Origin: Amyloporia xantha
Lineage: Eukaryota; Basidiomycota; Agaricomycetes; Polyporales; Adustoporiaceae
Assembly (NCBI GenBank): GCA_036971615.1
Contig: JAYKKR010000024.1
Location: forward strand, 558,001-622,000
Direction of reading: 5' to 3'
DNA length: 64,000 bases
Shown here: positions 33,640 to 52,433 of the stretch, one piece after another
Layout: each line of letters opens with the position of its first letter
Numbering within the stretch: position 1 is the stretch's first letter
The notes under the pieces: model-generated
Seen by the model: the letters and a program-made list of their open reading frames with translations, nothing else
Database searches by the model: none
What the model was told of the DNA's origin: nothing
Position numbers and translations under genes: made by a program

Positions 33640-33740
33640 TAAGGAAAATAAAATGCACTCATACAGAATTGAACCCCAAGACTTAGACAAACAAGAAGTA
33701 AACATTAAGTATGACCACTACACCACAAGACCATAAATAG
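33640..33740 (-). repeat. tRNA-like head, left arm
   Basis: Box A TGGTGTAGTGG at 33725-33715 and box B GGTTCAATTCT at 33675-33665 (minus strand), 39 nt apart, then GCATTTTATTTTC. The sequence does not fold as a convincing tRNA and lacks a clear anticodon arm, so it is read as a tRNA-derived SINE head. Confidence 0.6.
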
Positions 33741-34048
33741 ATTGAACTACTTAAACATTATGCTCTGAAGTTTCTCCAAGGGTTTCAATCTATTTGGACT
33801 TCAACAAATTTCGACTTTTTGACTTCTTTTATATTGAGTCAAATGAAGCCAGATTAGGGAAATACCAATTCAGATACAGACCTATGCAATGCTGATTATC
33901 TTCAAAACAATGTCAAATAGTATTGCATAGACTCCACCATTATAATATATCAGGTTGCATGTAATTCCAAGCCTTGTTAGAGTGCACATATTTGAAGACC
34001 CTTGGGGATTAATTATGATATATTAATTAAATAGTTAGCTTTAAAGAA

Positions 34049-34135
34049 GCTGTTATGGTGTAGTGGTTATGTTGCACTCATACTTATCATATATATTAAT
34101 GCATGAGTTCAATTCCTGTGAATGGCATTTTATTT
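34049..34135 (+). repeat. tRNA-like head, right arm
   Basis: Box A TGGTGTAGTGG at 34056-34066 and box B AGTTCAATTCC at 34106-34116, then GGCATTTTATTTTC, the same tail start as the left arm. It points away from the left head. Confidence 0.6.
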
Positions 34136-34314
34136 TCAGAGTTTTAGTTAGTTCTCTGACAAACACTGACAACCCTGAGCATCCTGACGGGTTTTCTCTG
34201 ATGGAGTATCTAACCCAAACTGACAGCTGGTGTCCTGACATCCCTGACAGGTCCTGAAAGGCCCTGACAAGCCGTTTGTCAGGGCTGTCAGGGCATTTGC
34301 AGAAGTTCTGATGC

Positions 34315-35322
34315 GGCAACCGAAACCGTGGTCTTGTCACTACCCAGAATGACTGGAACAAACATTGCGCCATGTGTCTCTGCATCTTCGGCGATCTTGT
34401 CCTGAGGATCACGGTCAATATATAGAAATCGTTGCTATGAGCGAAACATTGCATACAGCTTGGCGCCATGCCCAGTTGCCTGACATCAGGTTTGTATACT
34501 GATGTTTGCCTTCTGAATCGAATTCTCGATATGGCGCCGTATCAAACTCACCGTTGAAGTCAACATTACCTAACATGTTCAAGGTCATGGCACGAGGATC
34601 ACGAAACCAGATTTCGTGCTCGGCAGTCATCCAAGTTGGAATCTCACCGTCAGGACGAGGTCCAGTATATCGCACGGTGAACGACTGCCACGGAACACCA
34701 CCAAGAGGAGTAGAATCGATTACGGCATGCAAGTCCTTGAAATCCGCGAATGGAGGAGAGCGTGCATCTCGTAACACTGAGGCTGCCCAGAGATCCATAA
34801 GAGTGTTGATTTTGGTCTGTGGTATCTGAGTGATCTTGAACATGAACTCGGCCATCTCAAATTCAATTCGACTACGATAAGGAGTCCAGTCTTGCGGATC
34901 AGCCTCCGTCCGCGGCGGAGGCTGTGATCCCGGAGGTAGATACACGCCATCTGTAGTGCAAGGACGGCCTGTTTTCTTATTTTAGCTTTCTATCCTCAGG
35001 ACTACTGGTATGGCATTGAAGCATTGAACATACCATCTATTAGCGGGTGGATTCGCCGATGCAAGCTGTTCATTTTGTGTGCCTGAGACCGCGAGGGGTG
35101 AATATCTTCATTCTGGAGCAGGTGATCATCGGGCTGAGGTAGCACTGCATTCTGTGTCGAGGATATGACTGTCGCAGGGCCTGCTGGGTGCTGCAGGACA
35201 CAATGTGCTGAATTATAGTGCTGGGTGCGTCCAGAACTATTCCGGAAGGACCGGGGACAGGAGGGACACTGAAAACGGAGTGCGGCATGCTTCCGCCGTG
35301 TTTGGACGAGATTGATTGGCAT
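34315..35322 (-). pseudogene. Plavaka transposase, N-terminal part
   Basis: Exon 35322-35034 has a C2H2 finger (CPSCPRSFRNSSGRTQHYNS) at its start, the usual N-terminus of Plavaka proteins, then HPLID. An intron of 65 nt (35033-34969) joins in phase to GRPCTTDGVYLPPGSQPPP and the body: WTPYRSRIEFEMAEFMF, FADFKDLHAVID, LMSGNWAWRQA. A second intron of about 54 nt leads to DKIAEDAETHGAMFVPVILG and SDKTTVSVA, where the foldback element interrupts. Plavaka belongs to the CACTA/EnSpm superfamily of DNA transposons and is common in agaricomycetes. The transposase catalytic core lies beyond the break and is lost here. Whether the ATG at 35322 is the true start is unsure. Confidence 0.85.
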
Positions 35323-35553
35323 TGCGGTGTTGAGCTGGAGCTAAAGCAGTGTATGCCGAGAGTATATTCAATTCAAAGCAAGTGTCAAAGTATGATAATC
35401 ACAAATATTACACAGTAGAGGGGGCAGTGCTAGAAGAGAAATTTGACCAAGTCTGCACCTATGCGTGACAGCGAGGAACCATGCGCACGGGCCAGGTAGG
35501 GTGTGATCGGAAAATTGTTCAGTATCGCCATGTGGATACTTTACCAAGCTCGC

Positions 35554-37026
35554 TGTAAGGAATGAGTATGCGCTACCCTATGAACGGATGGTAGGGCGGA
35601 CGAGACAGCGGAACGGAGGAGATGCGATCACGCGGGACAAAGGAGCTCGGCGGAAGCAAGCATGGCATTCGAACGGAACGACTACAGGACGGAACACTAA
35701 TCTACGGTCGACAAGTCGATGGGAGCGTCGGGCCCTTCCCCGCCGACGTCAGAGAACGAGCGGTGGCGCGGGGACGATAAATAGTCTCCCGGTGGTAACG
35801 GAAATCCTCCTCCGCAGGGGTACGGGCCCGCGAGGGACCTCCCTCCCGACGTCCTCCCCTCCCTCCCAGAGCATGAGCGGCAACACGGATCGAGTGCTCT
35901 AGGTCTTCGAACGCCCGCGGATAGGGACGCATATGGTCCAAAGTGTCCGAGAACTGGCGGGCGACAAGTTCGAGCCGTTCTAAAGCTTCATCGGTATGTT
36001 CCTCGGCGATGCGGGGAGGGGTCCAGAAGGCCTCTTCCGTGTACAACGGGAGGGGAGGCGGAGTACCAGCTTCGTCCCGCTGCGCATTGGAACGAACCTC
36101 GTCGGGGCTCCAGGCGATCCCAGGATAGGGGACTGCACCGCAATGGCTCAGGGAGGAGCAGAAGATCGAGTCGATGTAGTGGACGAGCTCGCGGAGGGTG
36201 ACGAAGGCAGTGAGCGGAGGGAGCGTGAGGTTCCCCGCGGCTATGGCTTGGGCTCGAGCCTCATAGGCAAGGCGCTGCGGGACGGGACGTGAGGGGAAGG
36301 AAAGAGAAGTAAAAGAGAAGGTGGACAAACCAGCAGCCAGCGCACTCCGTGCGCCCAGGCAAGCCAAGCAGCCGGATCGGAAGGGCGGAACGAAGGCTCA
36401 ACAATGCACTCAGCGCGAAGCACGTCTACGAGGAGGAGGTAGCGGCGGACGTGGAGGGAACCGATGGGGTCGGTGGGTTCGGCAGGCTCAGACATGGCGA
36501 ATGAGGCGAAGGGAGGGGAGAGCGCGCGGAAGGAGGATAAGTAAGTCAGGGGAAGAGTCGGAGGGGAGGCAGCGGGAGGTAGCGGGAGGAAGCGGGAGGG
36601 AGAGTGACGTGGCAGCGCACGCGGGACGAGGTATATATGAGGAAGGGGGACGAGGCGGAGGGGGATCTACCATCTGGTACGAGCTGCGACTGGGATTTTG
36701 ACTTTCACGCGACCGGGTTTTTCTTGCTCAGCGGAGCTACACTGCGTTTTACTTCTACGAGAGGGCGAGCAAGCGGCTTGACCCATTTTACTGCGATCCG
36801 GGATATCTACTGCGTACTTAGGACTGCGACTGCGACTTGACTGGGATAGCACACATAGAGCATCCCCCATATACCTACGAGTCTCTAGCTCAATCAATTC
36901 TTTTCTCTCTTGCTCATCCTCCGTGCCAGACGCTGCGAACGTCTTCACTCCCCTTCCCCTTCGACTCATTGATCTGTTCCTTCCAGGTGTGCTTATCGCA
37001 CAGCGGGAGGAGCACCAAGCCTTACA
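35554..37026 (+). repeat. E2 LTR (LTR3) of a second, truncated copy
   Basis: 1473 bp, TGTAAGG...CTTACA, close to LTR2. Preceded by CTCGC. Followed by the same AGTGGAGCCCAC leader as LTR1, so it is the 5' LTR of another E2 copy. Confidence 0.85.
35696..36495 (-). pseudogene. E2 antisense U3 gene in LTR3, frameshifted near the end
   Basis: Same exons as in LTR1 and LTR2 (start 36495), but a single G missing from a G-run near 35772 shifts the frame in the last 25 or so codons, so the C-terminal PIDLSTVD is replaced. The remainder is conserved. Confidence 0.55.
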
Positions 37027-37326
37027 AGTGGAGCCCACTGCGAGGGGGAATCTTATAGTTCGAAGACTTCGTTCGCGCACCATCGCCGTGCCGGACCGTA
37101 CTCTACAGCAAGAACTTCTCTTAGCCCAGAACAGTCCTATCTCCCCCTGACTAGATCTCGACTTTCCTCACTTTCCCCTCCGACCGGCCGCGTTCGACGA
37201 CTCGGACTCGGATAACCCTTTCGACGTCAGAATCCCTCCCTTCCGGTCACAAAGCAACACGCGCTCCGTATCCCTCGAACATCCTTCGCCTCCGCTCCAT
37301 TCCCCAGTAAACCACGAGCCACCGGC
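37027..37326 (+). mobile_element. E2 internal 5' fragment
   Basis: 300 bp of leader colinear with 22546-22845, ending abruptly at ACCGGC where E3 begins. The rest of this E2 copy is not found on the far side of E3. Confidence 0.8.
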
Positions 37327-38385
37327 TGTTATGGATATCGTGATTAGTCTCCTTTTAAGACCGAGACCACTGGTGTGCAGCTCGGTCCCCAACTAACGGG
37401 TAGTCCTTCACTACCTGTCCAAGACCTAACGGAACGCCGGTATCAGCCAACCCTCTTGCTTCGCGTGTGAGACCGCGTCTCGTTTAGGAAAGTGACTCAG
37501 TAACCTATCCCGCTGGAACTCTCGAATTACTTTCCCTAGCGAAAGCGGATCTCAGGGACCCACAAACGCCTACAGAGAACGCAAGATACCGAATCCCGTG
37601 AAACCCACGAGGACCGGTACTTCGAGCCGAGTAAGGAGATACGGGCCGGTCTTGCATAAGGCTTGCTCGAGACCGAAGCAAGACCGAAGGATGACCGAGG
37701 GAGGCCACTCTAGGACGGCAGGTAATGGTGCGGTCTCACTTAGGATCCCATGCGGTGAAGTAAGAACAATAGGAGCATAGGTATAAGGCTGTGTACAATA
37801 GCTTGTAGGATACGGCGTGTTAAGGAACCTTCTAGCATATCTCACTTGTATTTAAGAAGACCAACGGTCTTCGGTTTCGAGCAATCCACTTTACCCTTAA
37901 AGCTCTTAGCACAACGAGACCTAGTCTCCTTCAATTACTATTGTAGATCTTACCATAGCTACGCGCTGGTAAAACGATCTATCCCAGACTTGACAAGCTA
38001 CTTATAGCTTCGCGCTAAGTAGTGGACTTCGGTATTGCCCTGCGCTACCTAAGTCCTTGGTCTGGCAACAATACTTGCGAAGGAATTGAGTTATCTTGTA
38101 ATAAGAAGTCTTTACTCTTTACCTCAAACTTATCACTGTGTGCGCTCCAAGCGGTATCGCCTTAAGACGGTCTTAAGCCTACGACCTTCGGTCTTAATCG
38201 ATACCAATCAAACTTACTGTCTTCAAGCTCTAAGACCTTTTGGTCTTACGTTACTTACTCGGTATATCGGTATTAAACCTCTGAAGACTACTTGAGTCTT
38301 CGCTTCAAACCCATAAGTATTTCCATCTCTATCTATTACTACTGATATACAAGCTTAGGTACTAGTATTACCCTAGTTCTTAACA
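37327..38385 (+). repeat. E3 5' LTR
   Basis: 1059 bp, TGTTATGG...CTTAACA. Contains nine CGGTCT/AGACCG hexamers. The sequence after it, TTGGTGGACATTCAG, includes the TGG of a tRNA-type primer-binding site; the tRNA was not identified. Confidence 0.9.
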
Positions 38386-38461
38386 TTGGTGGACATTCAG
38401 AGGAGACTTTTCCTTTGAATAAAGTTACTCACATTTCGTTCGCTTTAAGCTTCACTAACAG

Positions 38462-39793
38462 ATGTCTTTTGTCACTCTAGAGCACGAGGACGCCGCCTCT
38501 AGTAATCCCGGCCCTCAAGACCGCGATGAACCGGCAGATCACCCTCTTCCAGCTTCTCCCCCTAGGAGAACTAACTCAGAAGATGAGGAAGATTTCATTG
38601 ATCAATCGCTATTCGATACCGAGCTCGCTCCAGTGCAGGGAGGAAAACCAGTGGACTCGGTCTACTTCTCCAATGTCAGCTCGGTCACTCTGGAATTTCC
38701 AATCACTAATGCACTTCGCGACCTTGCTAACGTTGACGGTCCACTAGGAACCATCTTCGGTCGCAGATACGACGCAACCCTACTGGCACAAGAGTATCTG
38801 AAGCGCGCTCCCTATACTCTCCCCGAGGGCTACGACGGAACGCATCTATCCAGGACTGAAAGTCGGTATTGGCGTCGAGAAATCGATCTGCTCGATCAAA
38901 TCTTACAGAATCCCGTCCTTTACTCTGCAGAGGGCGGTATTGTCGGAGTATGCCCAGACCTTATCTTGTATAACAAACTTAACGGTTTGCTTGGAAAGCT
39001 CACTTATACTTACGGAAACCGTATTCAAGCCTGCGGTGTTCCTCCTCCTCCCTTTCCTAAATTCGACAAGGTTGGTCTATCTAAGGAAATTGTTTATTCG
39101 GTTAATGATTTCCAGATCTTGGGAGTCGCATACCGAGCAGAGGTCGAGACCTTCCTATTATTCTTAGCTAGGGTTTTAGGGATTCGTCAGAAAATCATTC
39201 CTGATGAGGATGAAGACGAGGCGCCCCCTCGAGTACCTAGTCGGCACAGTAACGCGTCCATCCCAAACGCTAGACCGACGACTCCAGTAACGGCTCCTGC
39301 GGTCTCATCTACCCTTCGAAGAACTCCTATCACCAACCGACCAAGACCGCCGCATATGGCAGGAAATACAAGACCGACTGCGACTGCTCCCACCGAAACT
39401 GATCAAGTTCCTCACGAAAACGAGGCTGAAGACCCGCCGCAAGACGAGGATCAAGACCCGACTACCAGGATTCCCGGAATGAGGGAGAAGGCTAAGAAGA
39501 AGAGAGCTGAACCCGCTCGTCACGGTCGCCGAATTACAGAGTTGTTCGGTAAGGGGGGGATTCCACGTATGAGAAGGTTCCCTGGTGATGATCCTAGCGA
39601 TCCTTCAGATTCTTCAGACGATGGAAAACCGACTGGACCTCCGAAGAAACCGGCAGGTCCTATTCCTCCAAAGCGAAACCGAAGAACCCGGATTCAGACA
39701 GCGAGGACGCGAAACCCGCTGAGGTACCTAGGTTTGACCTTAAACTTAAAATCGATGTCGTACCAACATGGGACGGAGACACTGAGACTCTAG
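38462..39793 (+). CDS. gag: E3 ORF1, Gag N-terminal part
   Basis: 443 residues from the first good ATG after the LTR. The N-terminus is acidic and proline-rich; the middle is helical (YWRREIDLLDQILQNPVLYS, YNKLNGLLGKLTYTYGNRIQ); the C-terminal third is lysine/arginine-rich and disordered-looking. It has no knuckle. The next ORF, at -1, carries the capsid-like and knuckle parts and is already open from about 39660, so the two overlap by over 130 nt. Either a -1 shift joins them or an indel near 39650 split a single Gag. It precedes the main Gag-Pol as in related elements where a long N-terminal extension is seen. Confidence 0.7.
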   Translation: MSFVTLEHEDAASSNPGPQDRDEPADHPLPASPPRRTNSEDEEDFIDQSLFDTELAPVQGGKPVDSVYFSNVSSVTLEFPITNALRDLANVDGPLGTIFGRRYDATLLAQEYLKRAPYTLPEGYDGTHLSRTESRYWRREIDLLDQILQNPVLYSAEGGIVGVCPDLILYNKLNGLLGKLTYTYGNRIQACGVPPPPFPKFDKVGLSKEIVYSVNDFQILGVAYRAEVETFLLFLARVLGIRQKIIPDEDEDEAPPRVPSRHSNASIPNARPTTPVTAPAVSSTLRRTPITNRPRPPHMAGNTRPTATAPTETDQVPHENEAEDPPQDEDQDPTTRIPGMREKAKKKRAEPARHGRRITELFGKGGIPRMRRFPGDDPSDPSDSSDDGKPTGPPKKPAGPIPPKRNRRTRIQTARTRNPLRYLGLTLNLKSMSYQHGTETLRL

Positions 39794-42700
39794 CTCGATG
39801 GATTATGAAGGTCAATCAAATAGCGGAAGGATCTTCTATGATAGCCAAACAGTTAGGGTCAGTCGTTCCCCGTCGACTTCGGTCTCACGCTGAGAATTGG
39901 TACTTTTCACTCCCGGGTTATGAACGAGAACGTATTCAGAAAGGATGGACTTCCCTGCGAAAGGCTATTGGGAAACACTACATGAACAAAGCCTGGTTAG
40001 ACCGACAAAAGTCTAAAGCCAATCGCGCTCGGTATCGCGACAGCGGTAACCACAGGGAATTACCTTCTGAATATTATATACGAAAGCTGGAGTTATTGGA
40101 GTTCGTATACGATTACACCGAAACCGAGCTGGTTGGTGAAATCCTGGATGGAGCCCCGGTCATGTGGAACACGGTTCTTTCTCCCCATCTGTATGCTAAG
40201 GTAGTCGATCTTCAGAACGCTATCAAGTATTACGAGGAAACCCTTGTTGGTCTTGGAACTGATTCTAAGGAACCATTAAAACCTTCCTTTGAAGACCGAC
40301 GAAACCGATTCAGGGATTCACGTTCCAATGCCGCTGATTCCTCCGCTCCTAGCCGGTCTCCACCCAAGTTCCCTCGAGACGATTCCAACCGGTCTAAACT
40401 TCGTAAGACTCCGCAGGAACTAGGCAAGCGACCTTGTCGTCACTGTGATAGTCCTTTCCATTGGGACAATGAGTGTAAACACGCTCGACAAGGCCAGCGG
40501 TTTGCTCGCACCAATTACATTCAGCTTTCCGAAGAGGAACTACGTGCGGAAGAGGAATATGAGATTGCTTACTTAGGATTGTCGGATGTAGAGTCTGAGA
40601 CCGAGCAGGATTTTCATGAATCCCTCCAGTCTACCGAACCCTCTGTATATCTTGCTCAGCCTAGCAAGACCGAAGCAGTAGGTAAGGCCCTGGAGGGAGA
40701 GACAGTCCCCTCGGCTACTCCGGAGTCCAAATCAGTCACGGTTTATAGTGCCCGCCCCGCTCCTCCTCCCCTTCGACGGAGTCGCAGGCTCGCTACTAAA
40801 AATCTTCGATCTCTCTTCCAAGGACCGGTCTCTCTAGACAATCAACCGGTCTTAGAGCTTCGCAAACACCTCGCTCGACCACCCGGATGCTCTTTTCTGG
40901 GATCTAAAGCTACCAAGGCCCGCGGATTCCTAGGGGATCGAGAGGTAGAAATGCAGGATATAATCATCGACTCGGGTTCAGATATCACTCTTATCTCTGC
41001 CAGATGTCTCGAAGAGATGGTCCACCCTCCTAAGATCAAAGCGGGACAGAAGATCAACTTAGTGCAGGTCACTGGCCGCGCTAAGATTTCTGGCTACGTT
41101 CCTATTGACTTGATCTTCAAGACCGAAGACCGATCCATTAAAATGAATGTCGAAGCTTATGTGGTCAAAGGAATGACTACTCCTTTCATTTTAGGCAACG
41201 ACTTCGCGGATCAGTATTCTCTATCGGTCTTAAGGCAGGACGGTAAGACCGCGATTCAGTTTGCGGACACAGGAATTTCCTTGGAAGTAGAGAATTCGAC
41301 TTCTTCACTTACCGATGATCATGGCCAAGCCTTCAAGGTATTCATAGGATCGCGAGACCGCACGGGGAGGACAAGACTACATAAGAGGAATCAACGGCGA
41401 AAGCGACAACAGCGCTCTCGGTCTCAAGATAATCTAGTCCGAGCTAAGCAGATGGTTATCATTCCGCCAGAATCCTCTAAGCTAGTACCAGTCTACGCGC
41501 CATTCGAAGACAACTTGAAGTCATTATTTGTAGAACGGTCTTTTCAAACGCATAAGAATATGGAGGATGTATTCGCTACCACGGACTCATTCATCTCCTC
41601 GGAAAGACCGGCTCTACACGTCGCCAACTTCAGTAAGCACCCTATGATCATTCCTGCTGGGCAACTTCTTGGAAAGGCTTTCGATCCCGATAAATGGCTA
41701 GACCGACCTGAGGGAATGGGCAAGACCGCCTTAGCCAAGGCGGCATCCCACGCTAGGTTTATACGTTTATTAATGGAAAGTAACGGATCCATAGATGTGC
41801 TTAGCCACTTGGCCCAAGGTCAAACGGTCTCAAGCACTGTCCAAGACCTGATCACTAGTCGAGGAAAGGATACTGTAGAAGACCCTTCCTCTACGGAACC
41901 ATTAGAGGGAGGACCCAAGACCGGGGAGCCCCCAGAGGAGATTATTGACGAGTCTCAACTCCTCAAGGAGGTCGACTTCAGTAGTCACGTATCGGATTCT
42001 CAGCGATCGGTTCTGGAACAGGTGGTTTTAAAGCATAAGTTAGCCTTCAGCCTGAATGGACGATTAGGGCATTACAACGCCAAGGTCGAGGTACCGTTAA
42101 AACCGAACTCTACTCCGGTCTCTCTCCCTCCCTTTCCTTCGTCCCCGGCTAAACGAGAAGTTATGGACAAACAGATGGATGCTTGGCTGGAATTAGGAGT
42201 GATCGAACCCTCCAAAAGTCCATGGGGTGCGCCTGCATTCATAGTATACCGGAACGGGAAACCTAGGATGGTTATTGATTTTCGAAAGCTCAATGACCAA
42301 GTAATACCGGATGAGTTCCCTCTGCCCAAGCAGGAGGATATCTTACAGGCTCTTACGGGTGCGCAATGGTTATCCACCCTCGACGCTCTCTCTGGTTTCA
42401 CTCAATTAGAAATGGCAGATAAGGATAAGGAGAAAACCGCTTTTCGCACTCATCGCGGTCTTCACCAATTCCGACGTATGCCTTTCGGTTTCAGAAACGG
42501 TCCTAGTGTTTTTCAAAGAGTAATGCAGAACATTTTGGCACCTTTCCTATGGATATTTGCGCTGGTATATATCGACGACATCGTGGTATATTCTACTTCA
42601 TTCGAGGACCACGTTAAGCACCTCAATTCGGTCTTCCTTGCTATAGAACAAGCCGGTATAACCCTCTCTCCAGGAAAATGTCATTTAGCCTATCAATCAT

Positions 42701-44475
42701 TACTTCTTCTAGGACAAAAGGTGTCCCGCCTCGGAATCTCTACCCACAAAGAGAAGGTGGATGCTATTGTCGGTCTCATGGAACCGCGAAATGTAAAGGA
42801 ATTACAAGTCTTCTTGGGAATGATGGTATACTTTTCTTCCTATATTCCTTTCTATGCTTGGATTGCAGCCCCATTGTTCGGTCTCCTCAAGAAGGAAGGT
42901 TTAGGTTGGGAATGGACCGAAGCGCATCAAGAGGCTTTCAACCTTTGCAAGCAGGTTCTGGTTAACGCTCCGGTTCGAGCATATGCTATGCCTGGAAGAC
43001 CATACCGATTGTATACCGACGCTTGTGACTACGGTCTCGCCGCTATTCTTCAACAAGTACAGCCCATGTTGATCAAGGATTTACGAGGCACTAAGGTCTA
43101 CGAGCGATTAAAGAGAGCCTTCGACAATAAGGAGCCAATACCGAACCTGGTAGTCGCAGTCTCCCCAACAGAAAGCGATGTGCCCGCTCCTGGTCAATGG
43201 GCTGACCGCTTTGAAGACACTACAGTCCATGTCGAAAGAGTGATTGCCTACTGGTCTCGCATTCTGAAAGCAGCGGAACGAAATTATTCTCCCACTGAAC
43301 GAGAAGCTCTCGCTCTCAAGGAAGGCTTAATCAAGTTCCAATCGTTCTTGGAAGGATCTTCGGTCTTGGCCATTACGGACCATGCCGCCCTAACCTGGAG
43401 TCGGACCTTTCAGAACGTAAATCGAAGACTACTGACCTGGGGAACAGTGTTCGCCGCATACCCCGGTCTCAAGATTATTCACAGAGCAGGACGAGTCCAT
43501 TCTAACGTCGATCCTATCTCGAGACTTCGACGAAGGATCCCTTACCAAGACGGCCCTTCCTCTGATCCTACTGATGCACTGCAACTTCACCAGGAAGTAG
43601 AGGATCCCCTCAGGAATATGTACGAGGAATTGGGACCGCGATTCGAGGAAAAGTTGATCAAGGTCGCGGCCCGGTTTTGTGAGATCTTAGACCGCGATGA
43701 GCAAGTCGAGGAGGTAACGGTCTTGTTCGCATCGCACGACTGTACGGAGTCCGAGATCCCTCAAAGTTCGGTCTACCAAACCTCGTCAACGCACTCGCTT
43801 CTAATCGGCATTACCCCTGAGGAGGTCCAAGCTTGGAAGGAAGCCTATCGAAAGGACGAGCATTTCAGTAAGGTCAAGAAGAGTCTTGAGACCGAAACCA
43901 ACTGGTCTAATCCCGAATTTCCTCAATACACTACCACCTCAGAAGGACTGATTCATTTTGAGGATCATCAAGGTAACAGTCGACTATGTGTACCGGATGC
44001 AATGCGGGTGCCGGTCATGAAGGAGGCTCATGATTTAATGACGGAAGGAGCTCACGCTGGTTATCATCGGTCTTACAATCGAATAGCATCCACTTACTAC
44101 TGGCCACGGATGTCTAGGGATATTAAGAGATATGTTTCCACTTGCGACGTTTGTCAGAAATCTAAGCCAAGACGACATGCTCCAATCGGTCTTCTTCAAC
44201 CTATACCGATTCCGACTCGACCCTTCGAAGTGATCACTATGGATTTTATTCCTGAACTTCCTAATTCCAGCGGTTTCGATAACATCTTGGTAATAGTGGA
44301 CAAGCTCACTAAGTACGGTCTATTTATTCCAACCACTACGAAGATCACGGAAAAGGAGACTGCTGCGCTCCTATTCAAGCATGTCTTCAGTGAATACGGT
44401 CTGCCCAAACAAATCATCTCAGACCGAGACGTGCGCTGGAGGGAGATTTCTGGAAGGAGGTCTGTAGACTCATGA
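39661..44475 (+). CDS. pol: E3 Gag-Pol main frame
   Basis: The useful open frame starts at about 39661, before the first ATG at 39805. It has a capsid-like region (VVPTWDGDTETLARW; KVNQIAEGS), knuckle CRHCDSPFHWDNEC, protease IIDSGSDITLIS, RT with VIDFRKLND, MPFGFRNGPSVFQ and catalytic YIDD, RNase H with LYTDACDYGLAAIL and ITDHAALTWS, and integrase with H...HAGYHRSYNR...CDVCQKSK followed by MDFIPELPNSSGFD and ISDRD. The frame ends at 44475 because of an indel near 44446, just after the second catalytic Asp of integrase; the third catalytic residue is in the next ORF. All other catalytic motifs are intact over more than 1500 residues. Confidence 0.9.
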   Translation, partial: YSSKAKPKNPDSDSEDAKPAEVPRFDLKLKIDVVPTWDGDTETLARWIMKVNQIAEGSSMIAKQLGSVVPRRLRSHAENWYFSLPGYERERIQKGWTSLRKAIGKHYMNKAWLDRQKSKANRARYRDSGNHRELPSEYYIRKLELLEFVYDYTETELVGEILDGAPVMWNTVLSPHLYAKVVDLQNAIKYYEETLVGLGTDSKEPLKPSFEDRRNRFRDSRSNAADSSAPSRSPPKFPRDDSNRSKLRKTPQELGKRPCRHCDSPFHWDNECKHARQGQRFARTNYIQLSEEELRAEEEYEIAYLGLSDVESETEQDFHESLQSTEPSVYLAQPSKTEAVGKALEGETVPSATPESKSVTVYSARPAPPPLRRSRRLATKNLRSLFQGPVSLDNQPVLELRKHLARPPGCSFLGSKATKARGFLGDREVEMQDIIIDSGSDITLISARCLEEMVHPPKIKAGQKINLVQVTGRAKISGYVPIDLIFKTEDRSIKMNVEAYVVKGMTTPFILGNDFADQYSLSVLRQDGKTAIQFADTGISLEVENSTSSLTDDHGQAFKVFIGSRDRTGRTRLHKRNQRRKRQQRSRSQDNLVRAKQMVIIPPESSKLVPVYAPFEDNLKSLFVERSFQTHKNMEDVFATTDSFISSERPALHVANFSKHPMIIPAGQLLGKAFDPDKWLDRPEGMGKTALAKAASHARFIRLLMESNGSIDVLSHLAQGQTVSSTVQDLITSRGKDTVEDPSSTEPLEGGPKTGEPPEEIIDESQLLKEVDFSSHVSDSQRSVLEQVVLKHKLAFSLNGRLGHYNAKVEVPLKPNSTPVSLPPFPSSPAKREVMDKQMDAWLELGVIEPSKSPWGAPAFIVYRNGKPRMVIDFRKLNDQVIPDEFPLPKQEDILQALTGAQWLSTLDALSGFTQLEMADKDKEKTAFRTHRGLHQFRRMPFGFRNGPSVFQRVMQNILAPFLWIFALVYIDDIVVYSTSFEDHVKHLNSVFLAIEQAGITLSPGKCHLAYQSLLLLGQKVSRLGISTHKEKVDAIVGLMEPRNVKELQVFLGMMVYFSSYIPFYAWIAAPLFGLLKKEGLGWEWTEAHQEAFNLCKQVLVNAPVRAYAMPGRPYRLYTDACDYGLAAILQQVQPMLIKDLRGTKVYERLKRAFDNKEPIPNLVVAVSPTESDVPAPGQWADRFEDTTVHVERVIAYWSRILKAAERNYSPTEREALALKEGLIKFQSFLEGSSVLAITDHAALTWSRTFQNVNRRLLTWGTVFAAYPGLKIIHRAGRVHSNVDPISRLRRRIPYQDGPSSDPTDALQLHQEVEDPLRNMYEELGPRFEEKLIKVAARFCEILDRDEQVEEVTVLFASHDCTESEIPQSSVYQTSSTHSLLIGITPEEVQAWKEAYRKDEHFSKVKKSLETETNWSNPEFPQYTTTSEGLIHFEDHQGNSRLCVPDAMRVPVMKEAHDLMTEGAHAGYHRSYNRIASTYYWPRMSRDIKRYVSTCDVCQKSKPRRHAPIGLLQPIPIPTRPFEVITMDFIPELPNSSGFDNILVIVDKLTKYGLFIPTTTKITEKETAALLFKHVFSEYGLPKQIISDRDVRWREISGRRSVDS

Positions 44476-44960
44476 AGATCGATCGGTCTCTGACGACGTC
44501 ATATCACCCTCAAGCGGATGGTCAGACCGAGATCCTGAATCAGACCTTGGAAATCGCAATGCGAGCCTACATCGGTCCGTCTAGGGATGATTGGTCTGAC
44601 CACTTGGACGGTCTTCGATTATCCTACAATACAAGCCCGCACTCTGCCACTGGATATTCGCCCGCTTACTTGCTCCGCGGATATCACCCGGTCACGGGGG
44701 GCACGGTAATGAATCCCGGACCCGCGATCCCGCGATCGGTCTCAGATACAAGCCACCCCGAGGCAGGAGATATGGTAGATGGATTCATGGCTGATCGGCA
44801 CGACGCTCAAGAAGCTCTGTACTTGGGTCAGATACACCAAAAGAGGGCTTACAATAACGGGCGGCTCATGACTGAATTCGAGGTCGGGGACAAAGTAGTG
44901 CTAAATGTGGACTCCTTAGAGCTACTTCGGTCTCAATCAGGTCGGGGCGGAAGCTGCTAA
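44472..44960 (+). pseudogene. E3 integrase core, continuation
   Basis: Continues integrase in a new frame: FWKEVCRLMK, TSYHPQADGQTEILNQ (catalytic Glu in QTE), YNTSPHSATGYSPAYLL and VGDKVVLNVDSL. It breaks again near 44950 by another indel. The starting ATG at 44472 is only an internal methionine. Confidence 0.8.
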
Positions 44961-45373
44961 TGAAGTACGACGGGCCTTTTGAGATCATCCGTAAAATCAG
45001 TGCAGTGGCATATCAGGTTCGCCTACCTGCCTCCTATGGAATACACCCTGTAATCAACATAGCGCATCTCGAACGGTACCACGAGTCCCCTGCGGAATTC
45101 GGAGAGAGACCGATCAAGGATCTCTCTCGCCAAGACTTTAATGAGTTGCCAGAATTCGAGGTAGAATCCATTATAGCGGAGCGGTCTCGACGAGGGCGTA
45201 ATGGCCGTAGGATCCCTCTATTCAAGACTCGATTTGTGGGATACGGTCCTGAATACGATGAATGGCTGACTCGGTCTCAGCTCCGCAACGCGCCCGATGT
45301 GCTCAAGGATTGGCAAGACCAGAAGAATCGAGCCGCAGTAACTAGTAAGCTGGGTCTGACTACTGTCGCATAA
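44960..45373 (+). pseudogene. E3 integrase C-terminus with chromodomain-like region
   Basis: MKYDGPFEIIRKI, VRLPASYGIHPVINIAHLE are the usual integrase tail; FEVESIIAERSRRGR, LFKTRFVGYGPEYDEWL is a chromodomain-like segment in which the aromatic cage is altered. In its original frame this would end Pol. Separated from the core by the indel near 44950. Confidence 0.75.
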
Positions 45374-45632
45374 AGCAAGCATAACCGGTCTCGGGTACAC
45401 TAAACTAGGCAGGAAGCCACCTTCCTCCTTTTCCCGGTAAGTTATTTCTCTACGATTCTGCTATGCCACTCTGAACAATAAGTTAATTTCCCGCTGTCTC
45501 GGTCTCTCAAGAGTAGGGCCCACTCTAAGAAGGATTCATATTTAAGGGATCACCTCTCATCACAGTCTTGCATCAAATCCGTCTTCTTTCCAACAAACTC
45601 CCAAGCTCAACTACCTCTTATACTTTTGACTC

Positions 45633-46430
45633 ATGTCGGCTATATTTGACGAAGACCGCTCCATGACCGCTCTTACTTCAGCTACCAGGGAACTCGCTCT
45701 CATTCCTACGACTCCCCTGGCTCAAGTTGCCGACCCTTACTTTCCCTCGACTATGTTCGTAGGAAATTTCTTCACTTGGACTCCCCTTTCCCCATCTGTA
45801 TCACCAGAGTCGGTCTTCCAGACCGAACCACCATCCATACCGGTTTCGCCGCCGCCTTGTGGCTCGCTCTCGAGACCGTCCACACGCAGTTCACTATAAC
45901 CCCTCAGATCAAGCTCGCCTGCCGCCAGCTCGGTATACGGTCTCCCCGTCTTCCTCACTGCCCCTTTCTATGGCGAATTCAACGAGTTAAATCGACTCTT
46001 CCCCTCTGAAGAGGAGGCTATGACCGCGGTTGCGGACGCTCAGCGTGATGGCATTGATGCTATCTCATGGGTCGGTGAATTCGTGCATGCCTGCTTGGCT
46101 CTTCCTAACGGTCTTACCGGTATCGAGACCGTGGATCGTCAGCTGGTATCCTACTACAAGTCTATAGGATGGCCCGGTTTCACGGAGGGCGAGTCCGCAA
46201 ACGAGTGTCGAGAGCTTATCCTCCACCCCACCCGCTCCATCCGACGTGCAGAAGAATATGACCCGGTCTCGCCATACTTCGACAGGGTGATGGACGAGAC
46301 CGATGACTCTTCCATGGACGAGGAAGGTACGGACTCGGATGAGGACTTCATTTTGGTGGGGGGGGATAGATGTGGGAATCATCCTTCTCATGATTACCAG
46401 GGTTGTAATGGTCAGGTTTCTGGTGCTTAG
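45633..46430 (+). pseudogene. E3 sense accessory ORF, frameshifted
   Basis: Coding-like sequence in two alternating frames between pol and the antisense gene: MSAIFDEDRSMTALTSATRE at 45633, then after a shift TGFAAALWLALETVHTQFTI, then after another PVFLTAPFYGEFNELNRLFP and SEEEAMTAVADAQRDGIDAI, ending in an acidic tail (DSSMDEEGTDSDEDFILV). The helical middle resembles a Gag-like capsid half in texture but no family is recognised. At least two indels near 45840 and 45930 break it. No hydrophobic helix of the kind in E1 is seen. The first ATG lies about 260 nt after the end of pol. Confidence 0.5.
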
Positions 46431-46603
46431 AAATAATTGAGAACCGAAAGGGAACTGCATGCTTCACTAGTCAAATATCATTTCTCTTATTTATCTGTCA
46501 CTCGGTCTTGATCTCTACAAGAAAAGGATTTATTTTACAAAAAACCGACCATTTACGAATAAGACACGACTACGATAATGAAGTCCTTGGTACACGAGTC
46601 CGT

Positions 46604-47925
46604 TTACTCCTCCTCGGTCTCGTCCTCGTCATCTTCGTCACGGTCAACACCCTTCCCCTTCTCGGTCTCCGCAGCCTTTCGCGCTTTTCTTCTTTCCCGC
46701 TGACGACGTCTCTTAGCAGCACCCTTGGACCGTTGCTTACCAGTCACTTCCTGCAGTTGACGTTGCAGTTCGGCTATCTGCGCTTCAAAGCGCGCGCGTT
46801 CCTGCTGGGCAAGGGTGGCTGGCCCAGGACCAGCCTCCGCCGGTCTTGGTTCGTCTGCCACTACAACCGATTCCTCATCCAAAGGAGTGACGGGAGGAGT
46901 ATACGCCTCCGCCGGTCTCGGTTCATTCTCCGCTACAATTGACTCCTCATTCAAGGGAGTGACAGGAGGGGTAGACGTCCTTTGAGAGGACTGAGTGGTA
47001 TGACGAGACCGCTTAGACCGCGTAGAACGATCCGAAGAGGCCGCTACAAACCGACGGAAAGGTTAGAACTCAGGCAGGAAACAGAGAAGGAGCGGTCTCA
47101 CCGGAACGCTTGGTGGAAGACCGGAAGGACCGCGCTCCTGAGTCGACTACAGGTACCCCTACCGTCTCACTCGCCAAACGTCGGTATCGACCGCGCCCCC
47201 CACTAATGGAGCACCGCTGTTTCTTGCCGCTGCAGAAAGTGCAAGCGCCACCGGGGCGCAGAGTTTCGCAGACTTCCTGCTCAGCTGCCTTGCAGCGTGC
47301 ACACCGGTTTGGCCCTCGAAACTAAGCATCAGAAGATAAAGATATTAGTAAACCCTATCTATCGGTCTTACAAGCGGAATAACTTACTCGTCGAATCAGT
47401 CCGACTTCTTCCTCCATCGCCTCCAAGTCAATGTCATCGTCTTCGCCTTCAACTAGGAGCCTGAGGTCAGCCGCTCGGTCTCAATCAAACCGAGGAATTG
47501 AAACTTACCTAACCAGAACTCGGGCGCATCATCGATTACATCGCGAGACGCTAGAAAGGCGGGATAAGTAGCAGGAAGATCATGTCGGTCTTCCCGCCAC
47601 ACGGTCAGCGCCAGCATCAAAGGAGGGAGGTCGAGGTCTGGTTGCTCCTCCAGAGAGTCCAGAATCTCGTCATTCTTTTTTAAAGAAAGCTCGGTTTCAA
47701 CAGGTATTCCAGGCGAGTAATGAACTAAAACCGCAGACTCACCATGTGGGCGCGATGAATCGCGTCGATCAGCTCCCAGTCGTAGAGCTCGGAATTCATG
47801 GATTCCCAAAGACGAATTTCGAACTCGCGTAGGAGCTCGGGAGTCCAGAGGGGAGGAGCCGAAGGAATTTCGAAAGTTTCTGCGAGTATCGACGCAGGCA
47901 TATCTTCGAGAGAAAGAGGGGCCAT
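46604..47925 (-). CDS. E3 antisense gene: zinc-cluster-like protein, 362 aa
   Basis: Five exons: 47925-47743, 47689-47509, 47452-47388, 47321-47102, 47043-46604; introns of 53, 56, 66 and 58 nt. Exon sizes sum to 1089 nt, exactly 363 codons, and all phases agree. Exon 1 is a helical module (LREFEIRLWESM, LYDWELIDAIHRAHM). Exons 2-3 are acidic. Exon 4 has RCARCKAAEQEVC...CTFCSGKKQRC (Cx2Cx7Cx8Cx2Cx6C), a variant of the fungal zinc cluster. Exon 5 has a basic SKRSRHTTQ stretch, a 23-residue unit repeated twice (TPPVTPLNEESIV / TPPVTPLDEESVV, ending PRPAEA), a short coiled coil (ARFEAQIAELQRQLQEV), an RRRQRERRKARKA nuclear-localisation-like run and an acidic end. It is intact although gag-pol around it has several frameshifts. 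Candidate reader of the CGGTCT motif. Confidence 0.75.
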
Positions 47926-47960
47926 GATTGCAAGCAGCGGTCTTAGACGGTAATGCAGGA

Positions 47961-47972
47961 CTGGGGGGGCTA
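47961..47972 (+). other. E3 polypurine tract
   Basis: CTGGGGGGGCTA directly before the 3' LTR. Confidence 0.7.
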
Positions 47973-49031
47973 TGTTATGGATATCGTGGTTAGTCTCCTT
48001 TTAAGACCGAGACCACTGGTGTGCAGCTCGGTCCCCAACTAACGGGTAGTCCTTCACTACCTGTCCAAGACCTAACGGAACGCCGGTATCAGCCAACCCT
48101 CTTGCTTCGCGTGTGAGACCGCGTCTCGTTTAGGAAAGTGACTCCGTAACCTATCCCGCTGGAACTCTCGAATTACTTTCCCTAGCGAAAGCGGATCTCA
48201 GGGACCCACAAACGCCTACAGAGAACGCAAGATACCGAATCCCGTGAAACCCACGAGGACCGGGACTTCGAGCCGAGTAAGGAGATACGGGCCGGTCTTG
48301 CATAGGGCTTGTTCGAGACCGAAGCAAGACCGAAGGATGACCGAGGGACGCCACTCTAGGACGGCAGGTAATGGTGCGGTCTCACTTAGGATCCCATGCG
48401 GTGAAGTAAGAACAATAGGAGCATAGGCATAAGGCTGTGTACAATAGCTTGTAGGATACGGCGTGTTAAGGAACCTTCTAGCATATCTCACTTGTATTTA
48501 AGAAGACCAACGGTCTTCGGTTTCGAGCAATCCATTTTACCCTTAAAGCTCTTAGCACAACGAGACCTAGTCTCCTTCAATTACTATTGTAGATCTTACC
48601 ATAGCTACGCGCTGGTAAAACGATCTATCCCAGACTTGACAAGCTACTTATAGCTTCGCGCTAAGTAGTGGACTTCGGTATTGCCCTGCGCTACCTAAGT
48701 CCTTGGTCTGGCAACAATACTTGCGAAGGAATTGAGTTATCTTGTAATAGGAAGTCTTTACTCTTTACCTCAAACTTATAACTGTGTGCGCTCCAAGCGG
48801 TATCGCTTTAAGACGGTCTTAAGCCTACGACCTTCGGTCTTCATCGATACCAATTAAACCTACTATCTTCAAGCTCTAAGACCTTTTGGTCTTACAATAC
48901 TTACTCGGTATATCGGTATTAAAACTCTGAAGACTACCTGAGTCTTCGCTTCAAGCTCATAAGTATTCCCATCTCTATCTATTACTACTGATATACAAGC
49001 TTAGGTACTAGTATTACCCTAGTTCTTAACA
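47973..49031 (+). repeat. E3 3' LTR
   Basis: 1059 bp, about 20 substitutions from the 5' LTR, no length change. All nine CGGTCT/AGACCG hexamers are shared. Confidence 0.9.
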
Positions 49032-52000
49032 GCTAGCCACCATGCTGCCTTCCACTCGTAAAACGCGAGCACTCGTCTCATCTCCTCTAAGATCAGCTCA
49101 CACTCCTCAGCCAACCGGTGTGCTCGGGCTCGTGCCTTACACCATTCGACGCGCAGAGCTGCATAGGCAATGAGCGAACACAATTCTCCGAAGGTACTCT
49201 TTGGGACTTACATTCCTGGACCCGCTCATCCTGGGGTCCATCCTCACTGCCAACGCCTGGTGCCAGCCATATCCACGACAGCGTCCGACGGCCCTCACTC
49301 TGCCCTTCCTCCCCAACCGTCATTGCGCGAACGTCCGTCGTGGCGAGGGGTCGTATGATGCCTTCCCAGCCCGTTTTGCCTAAAATCGCGGCTAGAGCCG
49401 CCAGCGCGTCGCGAGTCTTCCGGTAGCGTACTACATCCGCCTCGATCTTGTCTTGCACACTGTTGATAATAGAGCGCGCGCGTGTGTTGGGGCGTTGACC
49501 ACGTACAAATGTGTCTTTGAAGTGGTAGAGATGTGTTCGAAGGCGAAGGTGACGCCGCAAGTCATCGAGGATGTCGTGCGCCTGAGCATAGCGCAGTCTC
49601 CACTCAATGTCGTATAACCTTGGATCGCACGGCAGGTCCGAACCTATATCAGATGGTAAAAGTAAAGGAAGATTGGGAGCATCGGAGCCACGTTCTTGAT
49701 CCGCCGTGCGCATTGACCGCAGTTTTGCAATGCCGGGGATGTAGGCCTGTTGAATATCGAACCATGCGTCCAATTTGCGTAAGAGGGTGTTACGCCTCTC
49801 AATGACTTTGGCGCGCTGAAGATCAGTGGAGTGCGGGCCAAGCGACGCGATTTCGATGCACAGACGACGCCTGTAAGTCAAGTTGGTCAGTGCAATTTCA
49901 TTGACATAGACACCGTCACTTACTGTTGGTCCTCTAGGTCCAGTCCGGCTGTTACCATGACACCGGCGGACATCTCTTCATGCAGTGCCAGGCATTGACC
50001 TTGTTTTAGCTGGGCAGCCTCCTCTTCGGCCAGCTGGAGCCGGACAGCAGCCTGGGTCACATCTATAGAGCATATATCAGTGTTTGTATCACAAGCTACT
50101 GTAGTCGACATACTCGGCGTAGTAATTTCGAACGGATTGAGCTGCTTAGAGTCTTCCTCCCAGGCCTCAATCATCTTCGTCCATTCCGCTACCCGCGCCG
50201 CAGACATGGCGGCACTAAGCTGATCGAATGCAAGGGCGTGTTCATTACGCATTGGTAAAGCATTCTTGATTTTCGTCAGAAGGGTAGGACCTATGGTGAA
50301 GTTAATACATGGCCAGCAGTGTGTGATCCCACCTGACTTACCCATTTGGCAAACCTTGCGCCAGTTGTAATCACTGAACACGTCATCTAGGAGGTCGCGT
50401 CGAGAGCCGGGTCCCATCTCTTTTGTGCTGGAGGCGAATGGGTTCACTGCAGCCCAACCACGCTCGACCGCCTCGCCGTCGGTACGACCAACGCCTCGCG
50501 TGAGGTTGAAAGAGTATCGAGTTTGACACGAAGACTGGTGGGCGGATATATGGAACTTCGGGATGAGAAAGGTGATCTTCCGTGTCACGGGGTCCCATGT
50601 CCAGTCGTAGATTGTCCATCGGTTCCACAAATTTCGCGACCATTGACAAGCTATATCGTACGAGACGACAACCTCCAGGGTGTCGCCTGACGCCCCTCAT
50701 GTGTTTGCCAGACTAGAAAAGAAAAGGTAGTCCATGTTGACATAACTATGGCTCCATTCAGCGTCATCCCAGCAGCTATTAGACATGATAGCTTACCGTT
50801 CACCGTATTGCAAGTCACCCACGGCGCATGGGCGTTTCATATCATGGCGGGTACATTCCACGGTCCCCACGCCGCTAGCGGCAGTACCAATGGACTTCTT
50901 GATATTCGCGAGCTTGACTGCATCATGGTTGTGACATGTGCTCGGCTCTTCCGGGACCTTCTTATCATTCTTGGCCAGGAACGTCTTGTACATGGTTTCT
51001 TCGACAAAATATGCAGCCCCCCGATTCAAACCAGGATCGGCGACATCTGAGGAGACCTGCTTGCGCTTGAGACGGAAGTTCGCATCAAGGCCCATGAACA
51101 ACCTGTATAGCCATCTGAGACCGATGAGCTTATGTATTGTATCATATCACAGGTGAAGGAAATACTTACTTGCGTGATGGGGGGGCTTCTTGGTAGTCGG
51201 ACGGCAAGTTGATCCCGGGCTGTGGACAGGCTGGACAAACGACTGCGCATGACCCAGGAGGAGTCGCCGCAACTCCGCCTGGCTCATGTCCTCGCCCGCC
51301 GCGCTTGAGCATTTTCAGATGACGCCACTGGCGGACCATCCTCATGAATGATGGATATCGATCCTGGCATAGGTTAGTCAGTAGGAACATTGATGTCAGT
51401 TATTATCTAGGTCAAATACCTTTGGGGGCGCGACACCTGTGTTGTCCGTCCGCCGGGCTAGTGCTTGATAAAATTCATAACCCGAGATCTTGGACTGTGT
51501 TGAGAGCAGATGGAAATGTTCGAGTAGGCGAAATGTAGCCGCGGTCTTGGGATCTTTCGAAGTAGCGGGAAACAGGCGCATACGCACAAGTTGAGTCGCT
51601 CGGGCGAGAGCGTGTTCGCAATCGCAGTAGTCGACGCCCACGGAGTGGATACCGGTAATGTCGAGCACGATGAAATCGTCATCAAAGGCAGGCTTCGGGT
51701 TCATGCAGCGCTGGCCGGGTGAGTGGCCTAGCTGAATCCGCATGCCAAGGTGCTTGAGGGTAGCCCGGGTGAAATGAGTCTTCACCCAGTTCTGCCAAGA
51801 AAATGTGAGCTCTAGCATGACAGGATCGAGTAGGTCACTTACCAGAAGCCGGTGAAATGGATGCCGCCGATGAGACTCGACAGTACAAGCCGCGCAGTAG
51901 AGGCGTACATCACTGCAATCGCAGCAGCGATAGGTCGCTCCTGCGGTCTCGCACGAAGCGCATATGCCAGCCATGTGATCTCCCCGCCCCTCCAGCCGCA

Positions 52001-52433
52001 TGATTTCTAACAGCCACGCCTCAATGTCGGTCACCCATTCTCGTAAGGGCTGGTCCTACAGTCAAATAAAGTCAGTGCGAGAGACAATGCTCACGCAATC
52101 AAGACTTACACCTGGTGGGTGGCTGCGTTTCGGCCCCTCAGCAGCATCCAGGAAATATTCTTCTTCAAGGCCGGCAAAACGATCTTCCTCCGCGTCCGTA
52201 GCTGCTTCAGCGTCGGCAAGGAGATCAGGAGTACAAGATATAGATGACCCATCTGGATCACGGCCAGGTGAGCCTGGAGTCTCATAGTAGCATGTCTCTA
52301 CAGATACTCCTGTAGCCCGAGGCACGAAGTCGACATGACGGGTAAGAACCTCGGGAGGGGGAGCAGAAGCGGAGACAGGTGGGGCGTCAGGTAGGTCATG
52401 GTACTCCCAGGCTCGCTTGCGTCGTTTTCCCAT
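49032..52433 (-). pseudogene. KDZ-type transposase with CxC2 domain, 3' end cut by E3
   Basis: Multi-exon gene starting MGKRRKRAWEYHD at 52433. The CxC2 cysteine cluster follows: ICASCETAGATYRCCDCSDV, YCAACTVESHRRHPFH, then GHSPGQRCMNP, FIVLDITGIHSVGVDYCDC. The KDZ core begins RYPSFMRMVRQWRHLKMLKR, VVCPACPQPGINLP, and continues LDANFRLKRKQVSSDVADPG, STCHNHDAVKLAN, GVGTVECTRHDMKRP, VVSYDIACQWSRNLWNRW, LIPKFHISAHQSSCQTRYSF and NLTRGVGRTDGEAVERGWA. Introns such as GTAAGTGACC...TTGGCAG are in phase. KDZ (Kyakuja-Dileera-Zisupton) are DNA transposases abundant in basidiomycetes. The last exon, after a 5' splice site near 49205, reads LRVEWCKARARAHRLAEECE then MRRVLAFYEWKAAWW and stops at the LTR, so only the C-terminal end is missing. 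The core looks otherwise intact. Confidence 0.85.

What the first reader, a model, noticed from the sequence alone, without database searches (positions are those of the whole stretch)
37327..49031. Gypsy element E3 is saturated with one hexamer, CGGTCT/AGACCG, and encodes its own zinc-cluster protein
Hand count: 24 copies of CGGTCT or AGACCG in 45374-47972 (2.6 kb), nine in each 1059-bp LTR, and a similar density through pol. About one per 2 kb is expected by chance. In E1 (7.7 kb) I find about three and in 49-64 kb about seven, as chance predicts. The motif occurs in both orientations, in all three reading frames, in antisense exons, introns and LTRs, so coding does not explain it. The same element carries an intact antisense gene with a Cx2Cx7Cx8Cx2Cx6C cluster, a nuclear-localisation-like run and a coiled coil. 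Fungal zinc clusters often read CGG triplets, and CGGTCT contains one. Established parallel: VANC proteins of Arabidopsis VANDAL elements counter silencing by binding short motifs accumulated in their own element. A similar self-recognition system in a fungal retrotransposon would be new to my knowledge. The link between protein and motif is inference.
Basis: partly seen in the sequence, partly recalled or inferred. Interest (0 to 1): 0.88.

Follow-up and report, generated by a model that had tools for sequence, protein, structure and literature searches.

The report
Retrotransposon saturated with self-recognition tags
A fungal retrotransposon family carries one six-letter DNA word about every 125 bases along its whole length, with two variants filling the gaps, conserved far better than its surroundings; it is likely the mark by which a predicted DNA-binding protein, encoded backwards in the same element, would find and shield only its own copies from silencing.

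Summary
CGGTCT (both strands) occurs 85 times in 10.6 kb of E3 against 6.9 in dinucleotide shuffles; pol has 38 against 6.4 in codon-preserving shuffles. All 15 family loci examined (of 16 found in this genome) carry it at 5.4-9.1/kb, against 0.42/kb outside. Two sampled elements of the next-nearest Gypsy group, in which no zinc-cluster gene was found, do not. Between E3 and C21 (15-25% different in most regions) 71% of sites are conserved versus 27% of all hexamers, and 22 and 23 sites are private: density is kept while positions turn over. CGGTTT and CGGTAT are also enriched, sit in gaps between CGGTCT sites, and make coverage more even than random. This points to a DNA-reading protein. Best candidate: the element's own antisense zinc-cluster protein, whose second cysteine half resembles the first half of Pfam Zn_clus (just under cut-off). 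Binding and an anti-silencing role are inferred. It works like Arabidopsis VANC/VANDAL but differs in element class, protein, and dispersed, coding-inclusive sites. No relatives' DNA outside this genome could be tested.

The parts
37327..38385 (+). 5' LTR, 1059 bp, nine CGGTCT sites
   Evidence: the repeat finder; positions; differs from the 3' LTR at 22 of 1059 bases
38462..39793 (+). gag-like ORF, 443 aa, six motif sites
   Evidence: counts; no significant Pfam hit, named gag by position only
39805..44475 (+). pol ORF 1556 aa: protease-like, RT, RNase H, integrase H2C2 and part of the core; 38 motif sites
44472..45373 (+). rest of integrase with SH3_Tf2-1 and chromodomain, split into two ORFs in this copy (44472-44960, 44960-45373)
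45633..46364 (+). accessory sense gene (homologous proteins about 245-265 aa, function unknown); reading frame broken in this copy, open in C3, C21, C24, C25, C32, C48, C6, C14 and C34:2258k
   Evidence: dN/dS 0.07 between the C32 and C21 copies
46604..47925 (-). antisense zinc-cluster gene, five exons 47925-47743, 47674-47509, 47452-47388, 47321-47102, 47043-46604; 357 aa, basic run, predicted coiled coil, acidic tail; convergent with the accessory gene, its ATG 47 bp from the 3' LTR
   Evidence: gene model (splice sites chosen by eye); homologues in 14 loci of the genome
47102..47321 (-). exon 4 with the six-cysteine cluster; the homologous exon in C21 and C3 matches Pfam Zn_clus profile 2-15 at E 0.0017 and 0.0014 (about 19 bits, cut-off 21); the E3 exon itself does not
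47973..49031 (+). 3' LTR, 1059 bp, nine CGGTCT sites
37327..49031 (.). dispersed CGGTCT/AGACCG sites, 94 in all (8.0/kb), both orientations; with CGGTTT and CGGTAT 130 sites in 37327-47972, largest gap 273 bp

Best explanation
The hexamer CGGTCT, with its variants CGGTTT and CGGTAT, is conserved beyond coding need along every part of this Ty3/Gypsy family, and it is likely a self-recognition mark read by the zinc-cluster protein predicted from the element's own antisense gene, which would coat the element and keep it out of silent chromatin. Shown: the enrichment, its fall to background outside the elements, its presence in all 15 family loci examined, conservation of sites beyond a codon model, turnover at constant density, a tolerance essentially limited to one position, gap-filling by the tolerated variants, and purifying selection on two exons of the zinc-cluster gene. 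The acidic tail and the position of the gene against the LTR would fit an activator that also acts on its own promoter region.
For: Enrichment 85 v 6.9; codon shuffles 38 v 6.4 in pol. 15 of 15 family loci enriched, 1099 sites in 135,576 bp against 60 in 141,924 bp outside. E3 v C21: 61 of 86 sites conserved (0.71) against 0.27 of all hexamers; in pol 27 of 38 against 13.8 (sd 2.9) expected from codon replacement, with 605 of 1555 codons synonymously changed; 22 E3 sites lost in C21, 23 C21 sites absent in E3. Single-mismatch scan: CGGTTT and CGGTAT are enriched about 3-6 fold in E3, C21, C25 and C3, with shared flanks T at -1 and Y at +6. The T and A forms lie further from CGGTCT sites than random (E3 P 0.002; two C21 stretches P 0.07 and 0.005) and the largest gap is 273, 208 and 199 bp; class spacing is under-dispersed. 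Zinc-cluster gene found in 14 loci, all of this family; dN/dS about 0.12 in exon 5 and 0.10 in exon 2; Zn_clus match of the second cysteine half in C21 and C3. Zn2Cys6 proteins typically read pairs of CGG triplets, and Pho7 reads a site beginning TCG(G/C) (PMC5559640, passages).
Against: No binding, expression or methylation data. The E3 exon itself gives no Zn_clus hit and the C21 and C3 hits are under the cut-off; the first loop has seven, not six, residues. By exon the zinc-cluster protein is only 54-71% identical between E3 and C21 although the motif is the same, and dN/dS could not be estimated for exon 4 with the cysteines or for exon 1 because dS is saturated. AlphaFold models were useless (pLDDT 37 accessory, 44 zinc exon). 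Zn2Cys6 proteins mostly bind paired CGGs, and no preferred pair spacing was seen. CpG observed/expected is near 1 in E3 and in the other elements measured (0.95-1.14; 0.74 in the truncated C48 copy), so no trace of differential methylation was seen. CGCTCT is also about two-fold up in C21, C25 and C3. Evenness P values are uncorrected; CGGTCT alone in E3 is not significantly even in 150-bp bins (P 0.24), and the class in E3 not in 500-bp bins (P 0.10); C21, C25, C3 and C24 are not independent.
Confidence: 0.55

Rival explanations
1. A host CGG-reading regulator or chromatin factor reads the motif; the element has filled itself with host sites to stay open, transcribed or replicated, and the zinc-cluster protein does something else.
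For: The selection shown is for recognition, not for a given reader. Host zinc-cluster regulators are abundant in fungi (recalled).
Against: Two sampled group-B Gypsy elements in the same genome, under the same host factors, show no enrichment. The motif is not dense genome-wide (0.465/kb) and the zinc-cluster gene was found only in this family.
Confidence: 0.2
2. An element protein reads the motif, but for another purpose: target immunity (keeping new copies from inserting into old ones), tethering of DNA to chromosomes or centromeric chromatin, or cDNA handling.
For: Coverage of the whole length without long gaps suits coating for immunity or tethering as well as anti-silencing; the integrase carries a chromodomain; the C32 copy lies in a tandem-repeat array.
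Against: The zinc-cluster gene is an antisense unit of its own with a likely coiled coil and an acidic tail, closer to a regulator than to an integration factor (inference). C24 carries an apparent nested insertion, which bears only weakly on immunity.
Confidence: 0.18
3. The motif is a by-product: codon use, base composition, amplification of a short repeat, or an RNA-level packaging signal.
For: Short words can be inflated by copying; plus-strand sites are somewhat commoner (52 v 33).
Against: Codon-preserving and dinucleotide shuffles; sites are dispersed with free flanks, not tandem; both orientations in coding DNA and LTR, and present in three of four introns; conservation and turnover at constant density; a pattern of tolerated variants that CpG decay does not predict.
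Confidence: 0.04

Closest known systems
VANC/VANDAL anti-silencing system of Arabidopsis (Mutator-like DNA transposons; PMC5735166, PMC10398659, passages read)
   Same: A transposon family enriched in one short motif that is rare elsewhere, carrying its own accessory gene; high motif density as the mark of self; an accessory protein with strongly diverged parts (here the zinc-cluster protein is far more diverged than RT).
   Different: Fungal LTR retrotransposon, not a plant DNA transposon; zinc-cluster-like protein (no sequence comparison with VANC was run); motif dispersed through coding and noncoding DNA in both orientations, whereas VANC motifs are mainly noncoding, same-orientation and often in tandem repeats. 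Binding and demethylation are shown for VANC, not here.
Fungal Zn2Cys6 regulators (Gal4, Pho7; PMC5559640, PMC5412356, passages read)
   Same: Six cysteines in two Cx2C...C halves, CGG in the putative target, likely coiled coil.
   Different: Cx2Cx7C first half instead of Cx2Cx6C; only the second half of the C21 and C3 domains matches the Zn_clus profile (its positions 2-15), as if the halves were exchanged; carried by a retrotransposon; putative target fills the carrier.
TET/JBP genes in fungal DNA transposons (PMC12730594, passages read)
   Same: Transposon-carried gene proposed to counter epigenetic silencing in fungi.
   Different: An enzyme, in DNA transposons and some Helitrons; [quoted passage not shown]
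DNA uptake sequences and Chi-type words of bacteria (recalled, not searched)
   Same: One short word over-represented, coding regions included, marking self DNA.
   Different: Mark whole bacterial genomes for uptake or repair, not one mobile element.

Membership tests
VANC/VANDAL-type sequence-specific anti-silencing | short motif strongly enriched in the element and rare elsewhere | tested here: met
   8.1/kb inside against 0.42/kb outside, 15 of 15 loci examined
VANC/VANDAL-type sequence-specific anti-silencing | element encodes an accessory protein that binds the motif | not testable with these tools
   gene found in 14 loci; binding not tested
VANC/VANDAL-type sequence-specific anti-silencing | motifs mainly noncoding, same orientation, in tandem repeats | tested here: not met
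   38 sites in pol, both orientations, dispersed
VANC/VANDAL-type sequence-specific anti-silencing | carried by a VANDAL/Mutator-like DNA transposon | tested here: not met
   LTRs, RT, RNase H, integrase, chromodomain
VANC/VANDAL-type sequence-specific anti-silencing | loss of silent marks on the element | not testable with these tools
   no methylation data
Zn2Cys6 binuclear cluster proteins | Cx2Cx6Cx5-12Cx2Cx6-8C (as given in PMC5412356) | tested here: not met
   Cx2Cx7Cx8Cx2Cx6C in E3 and C21: first spacer one residue too long
Zn2Cys6 binuclear cluster proteins | Pfam Zn_clus (PF00172) above its cut-off | tested here: inconclusive
   18.8 and 19.2 bits against a cut-off of 21 for the C21 and C3 exons, no hit for the E3 exon or the whole protein
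Ty3/Gypsy LTR retrotransposon with chromodomain (chromovirus-like) | LTRs, RT-RNaseH-integrase order, chromodomain, 5-bp target duplication | tested here: met
   5-bp duplications at C60, C32, C14, C21, C25, not at the window copy (5 of 6 looked at)

The most novel reading that the evidence does not exclude
A retrotransposon has rewritten its whole sequence, genes included, into a continuous protein landing strip: about two CGGT[C/T/A]T sites per nucleosome length, kept evenly spaced by selection, read by its own zinc-cluster protein with exchanged cysteine halves, so that every copy is recognised as self and held out of silent chromatin. It would be a self-marking anti-silencing system in a fungal LTR retrotransposon, convergent with plant VANC; the paper searches showed me no earlier one.
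Probability: 0.4. Interest if true: 0.93.

Novelty: new variant of a known kind. Interest (0 to 1): 0.86.

Why it matters
How mobile elements escape silencing without unlocking the whole genome is an open question; the one worked sequence-addressed example that I know of is in plants. Here the sequence itself yields a testable motif, its tolerated variants and a candidate reader, in a genome with related elements that seem to lack both. If true, selection on a whole element can shape coding DNA into a chromatin code, and the protein would be a small sequence-addressed chromatin opener.

Tried and rejected
Compositional, codon and tandem-copy explanations were rejected by shuffles, tolerated variants and dispersal. 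A helical or fixed pair spacing was looked for and not found. Homologues of the zinc-cluster protein: none at E 0.001 among the 7,996 candidates scored in the large protein collection. Homologues of the accessory protein: two, 92% and 61% identical to the C48 query, protein only, no DNA or taxon. Pol and accessory searches of viral contigs and pol in genome contigs confirmed no relative. AlphaFold models of the accessory protein and the zinc exon were too poor for a fold search; a profile search of solved structures gave nothing convincing (best E 0.46). A close-triplet pattern scan of the genome gave nine places, fewer than its backward control (21), and none in the elements, since their sites are spaced apart. 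Papers: searches returned none; some searches returned listings (15 of 18, 1, 6 of 7 and 10 of 13 shown) in which I saw no such fungal element; the library holds open-licence papers only. Polarising gains against losses was not possible: group B is too distant.

Limits of sampling. One of 16 known family loci (C34:2310622-2311203) was not fetched. Group B was sampled at 2 of the 14 loci at 55-66% identity, and neither fetch was shown to reach both LTRs, so its lack of the accessory genes rests, which are lower-bound searches. Evenness tests used E3 without its 3' LTR and single fetched stretches of C21, C25, C3 and C24, not whole elements.
Full report
What was checked. E3 is a Ty3/Gypsy element with 1059-bp LTRs, RT, RNase H, integrase and chromodomain. 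CGGTCT on either strand occurs 94 times in 37327-49031, 85 times without the 3' LTR. Dinucleotide shuffles give 6.9; codon-preserving shuffles of pol give 6.4 against 38; LTR 9 against 0.6; accessory region 12 against 0.8; zinc-gene region 12 against 1.1. In E1, E2 and the outer parts of the window the best hexamer reaches z 9.4 at most (a CCTCCC-type word in GC-rich E2), against 21.8 here.

The family. The window lies in a 46.8-Mb genome. Named proteins among the nearest pol relatives are from agaricomycetes such as Hypsizygus, Mycena and Trametes; the best match of any kind is 53% identical. Near-identical copies of E3 stand on three other contigs. More distant members such as C21, C25, C3 and C24 share about 75-85% of DNA in gag, pol and LTR, while the RT-RNase H stretches are 92-99% identical in protein. 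I fetched 15 of the 16 loci found. All 15 carry the word at 5.4-9.1/kb inside the part homologous to E3 (gaps under 1.5 kb counted as inside), 1099 sites in 135,576 bp, against 60 in 141,924 bp outside; in 1-kb bins density falls to background outside the element ends. Genome-wide it is 0.465/kb. Group B (RT about 62% identical), in which neither accessory gene was found, has 6 sites in 10 kb and 5 in 6 kb; E1 has 3 in 8.4 kb and E2 3 in 16.2 kb.

Selection on the word. Comparing E3 with C21, 61 of 86 alignable sites are conserved against 27% of all hexamers; C25 gives 60 of 85, C3 58 of 86, C24 57 of 86, C6 38 of 56, C18 37 of 57, C34 (2255k) 26 of 41 and C48 19 of 31, with 22-26% of all hexamers. 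In pol, a codon replacement model expects 13.8 conserved sites of 38; 27 are (C25 28 v 13.4, C3 25 v 13.0, C24 25 v 13.9). By region the C21 comparison gives LTR and leader 6 of 8, gag 3 of 6, pol 27 of 38, integrase tail 7 of 8, accessory 10 of 12, zinc gene 2 of 5. Sites come and go: outside the 3' LTR, 22 E3 sites are not words in C21 and 23 C21 words are not in E3, while whole-element totals are 94 and 98. These changes are not polarised.

Of the 18 single-base variants, CGGTTT and CGGTAT stand out in E3 (23 against 5.5 and 22 against 6.9); CGGTGT does not (3 against 3.4). C21, C25 and C3 repeat this, with CGCTCT also about two-fold up there (18 against 7.8, 18 against 7.8, 14 against 6.9), and share the flank preference T at -1 (about half the sites) and pyrimidine at +6 (85-88%). 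CpG decay would have enriched TGGTCT and CAGTCT, which are near expectation.

Even coverage. Sites of the class CGGT[C/T/A]T number 130 in 10.6 kb of E3. Variance over mean in 150-bp bins is 0.63 in E3 and 0.40-0.45 in stretches of C21, C25, C3 and C24, against 0.84-0.87 for random non-overlapping placement (P 0.03 for E3, 0.001-0.01 for the others; uncorrected, and those four are related). All 215 control hexamer sets in E3 are less even at 150 bp (mean 1.0, lowest 0.69), but not at 500 bp (lowest 0.32 against 0.52). CGGTCT alone is not significantly even in E3 at 150 bp (0.80, P 0.24), while it is in C21, C3 and C24 (P 0.005-0.02). With CGGTCT sites held fixed, the T and A variants lie further from them than random (E3 84 against 59 bp, P 0.002; C21 60 against 50, P 0.07, and 136 against 83, P 0.005) and the largest gap is 273, 208 and 199 bp (P 0.006, 0.018, 0.005). 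Other single-mismatch words lie at 55, 46 and 88 bp, close to the random values. I take this as the best sign that the variants are functional and that coverage itself is selected. A pure promoter function would concentrate sites in the LTR; they are not concentrated there.

The candidate reader. The antisense gene model has five exons and 357 residues in the window copy. The gene was found in 14 loci, all of this family; exon 5 has dN/dS about 0.12 and exon 2 about 0.10; exons 1 and 4 could not be estimated because dS is saturated. The six cysteines and the GRGRYRR stretch after them are invariant in the four aligned exons. Pfam Zn_clus matches C21 and C3 just under its cut-off, and it is profile positions 2-15, the first half, that match the second cysteine half here; that the first half makes the CGG contact in Gal4-type proteins is recalled. 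Zn2Cys6 proteins typically read pairs of CGG triplets and Pho7 reads TCG(G/C)(A/T)xxTTxAA (PMC5559640, passages), so CGG in the word fits. A second, sense-strand accessory gene of unknown fold was also found only in the family and is under purifying selection (dN/dS 0.07); it is an alternative reader or partner.

Mechanism. The simplest account is a self-mark read by an element protein. Because silencing in fungi works on chromatin and cytosine methylation (recalled), and this genome has DNA_methylase matches over the cut-off, I favour anti-silencing, as in VANC; target immunity or tethering remain open. Shown and inferred steps are separated in the statement of the best explanation.

State of the window copy. 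Its integrase and accessory frames are broken, its LTRs differ at 22 of 1059 bases and it has no 5-bp target duplication; its 5' flank is E2-type sequence and its 3' flank has no match to E2. It is probably a product of recombination between copies. LTR pairs of six other copies with full pairs are 99.7-100% identical, so the family has been active recently.

Noticed in passing
window 45633-46364 and homologues (L036 5070-5801, L028 5091-5825): A second accessory gene on the sense strand, found only in this family in the genome, with no Pfam match and two outside protein homologues (92% and 61% identity to the C48 copy).
   Followed up: partly
window 37327-49031: The copy lacks a 5-bp target duplication, has 22 LTR differences and flanks of different origin, so it is likely a recombinant between two insertions.
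   Followed up: partly
window 49920-52034 (- strand): KDZ transposase fragment and CxC2 cysteine cluster next to E3 (Pfam KDZ E 2e-27, CxC2 E 1e-45).
   Followed up: no
L036/L037 (C32:148852-149405 and 161105-162307): The C32 copy sits inside an array of about 129-bp tandem repeats; 86-bp repeats lie close to the C34 (2255k) and C6 members. Possible target preference or centromeric location.
   Followed up: no
window 21115-37326: GC-rich repeat-bearing element E2 with RT- and integrase-like ORFs (read by eye) and three copies of a long repeat; E3's 5' end lies within one of them.
   Followed up: no
L040 about 2001-6200: C48 carries a truncated family member with lower CpG (o/e 0.74) and lower motif density (5.4/kb), an apparently older, decaying copy.
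   Followed up: partly
C21, C25, C3 (L028, L022, L032): CGCTCT is also about two-fold over expectation in these members but not in E3, a possible small shift in the tolerated word.
   Followed up: no
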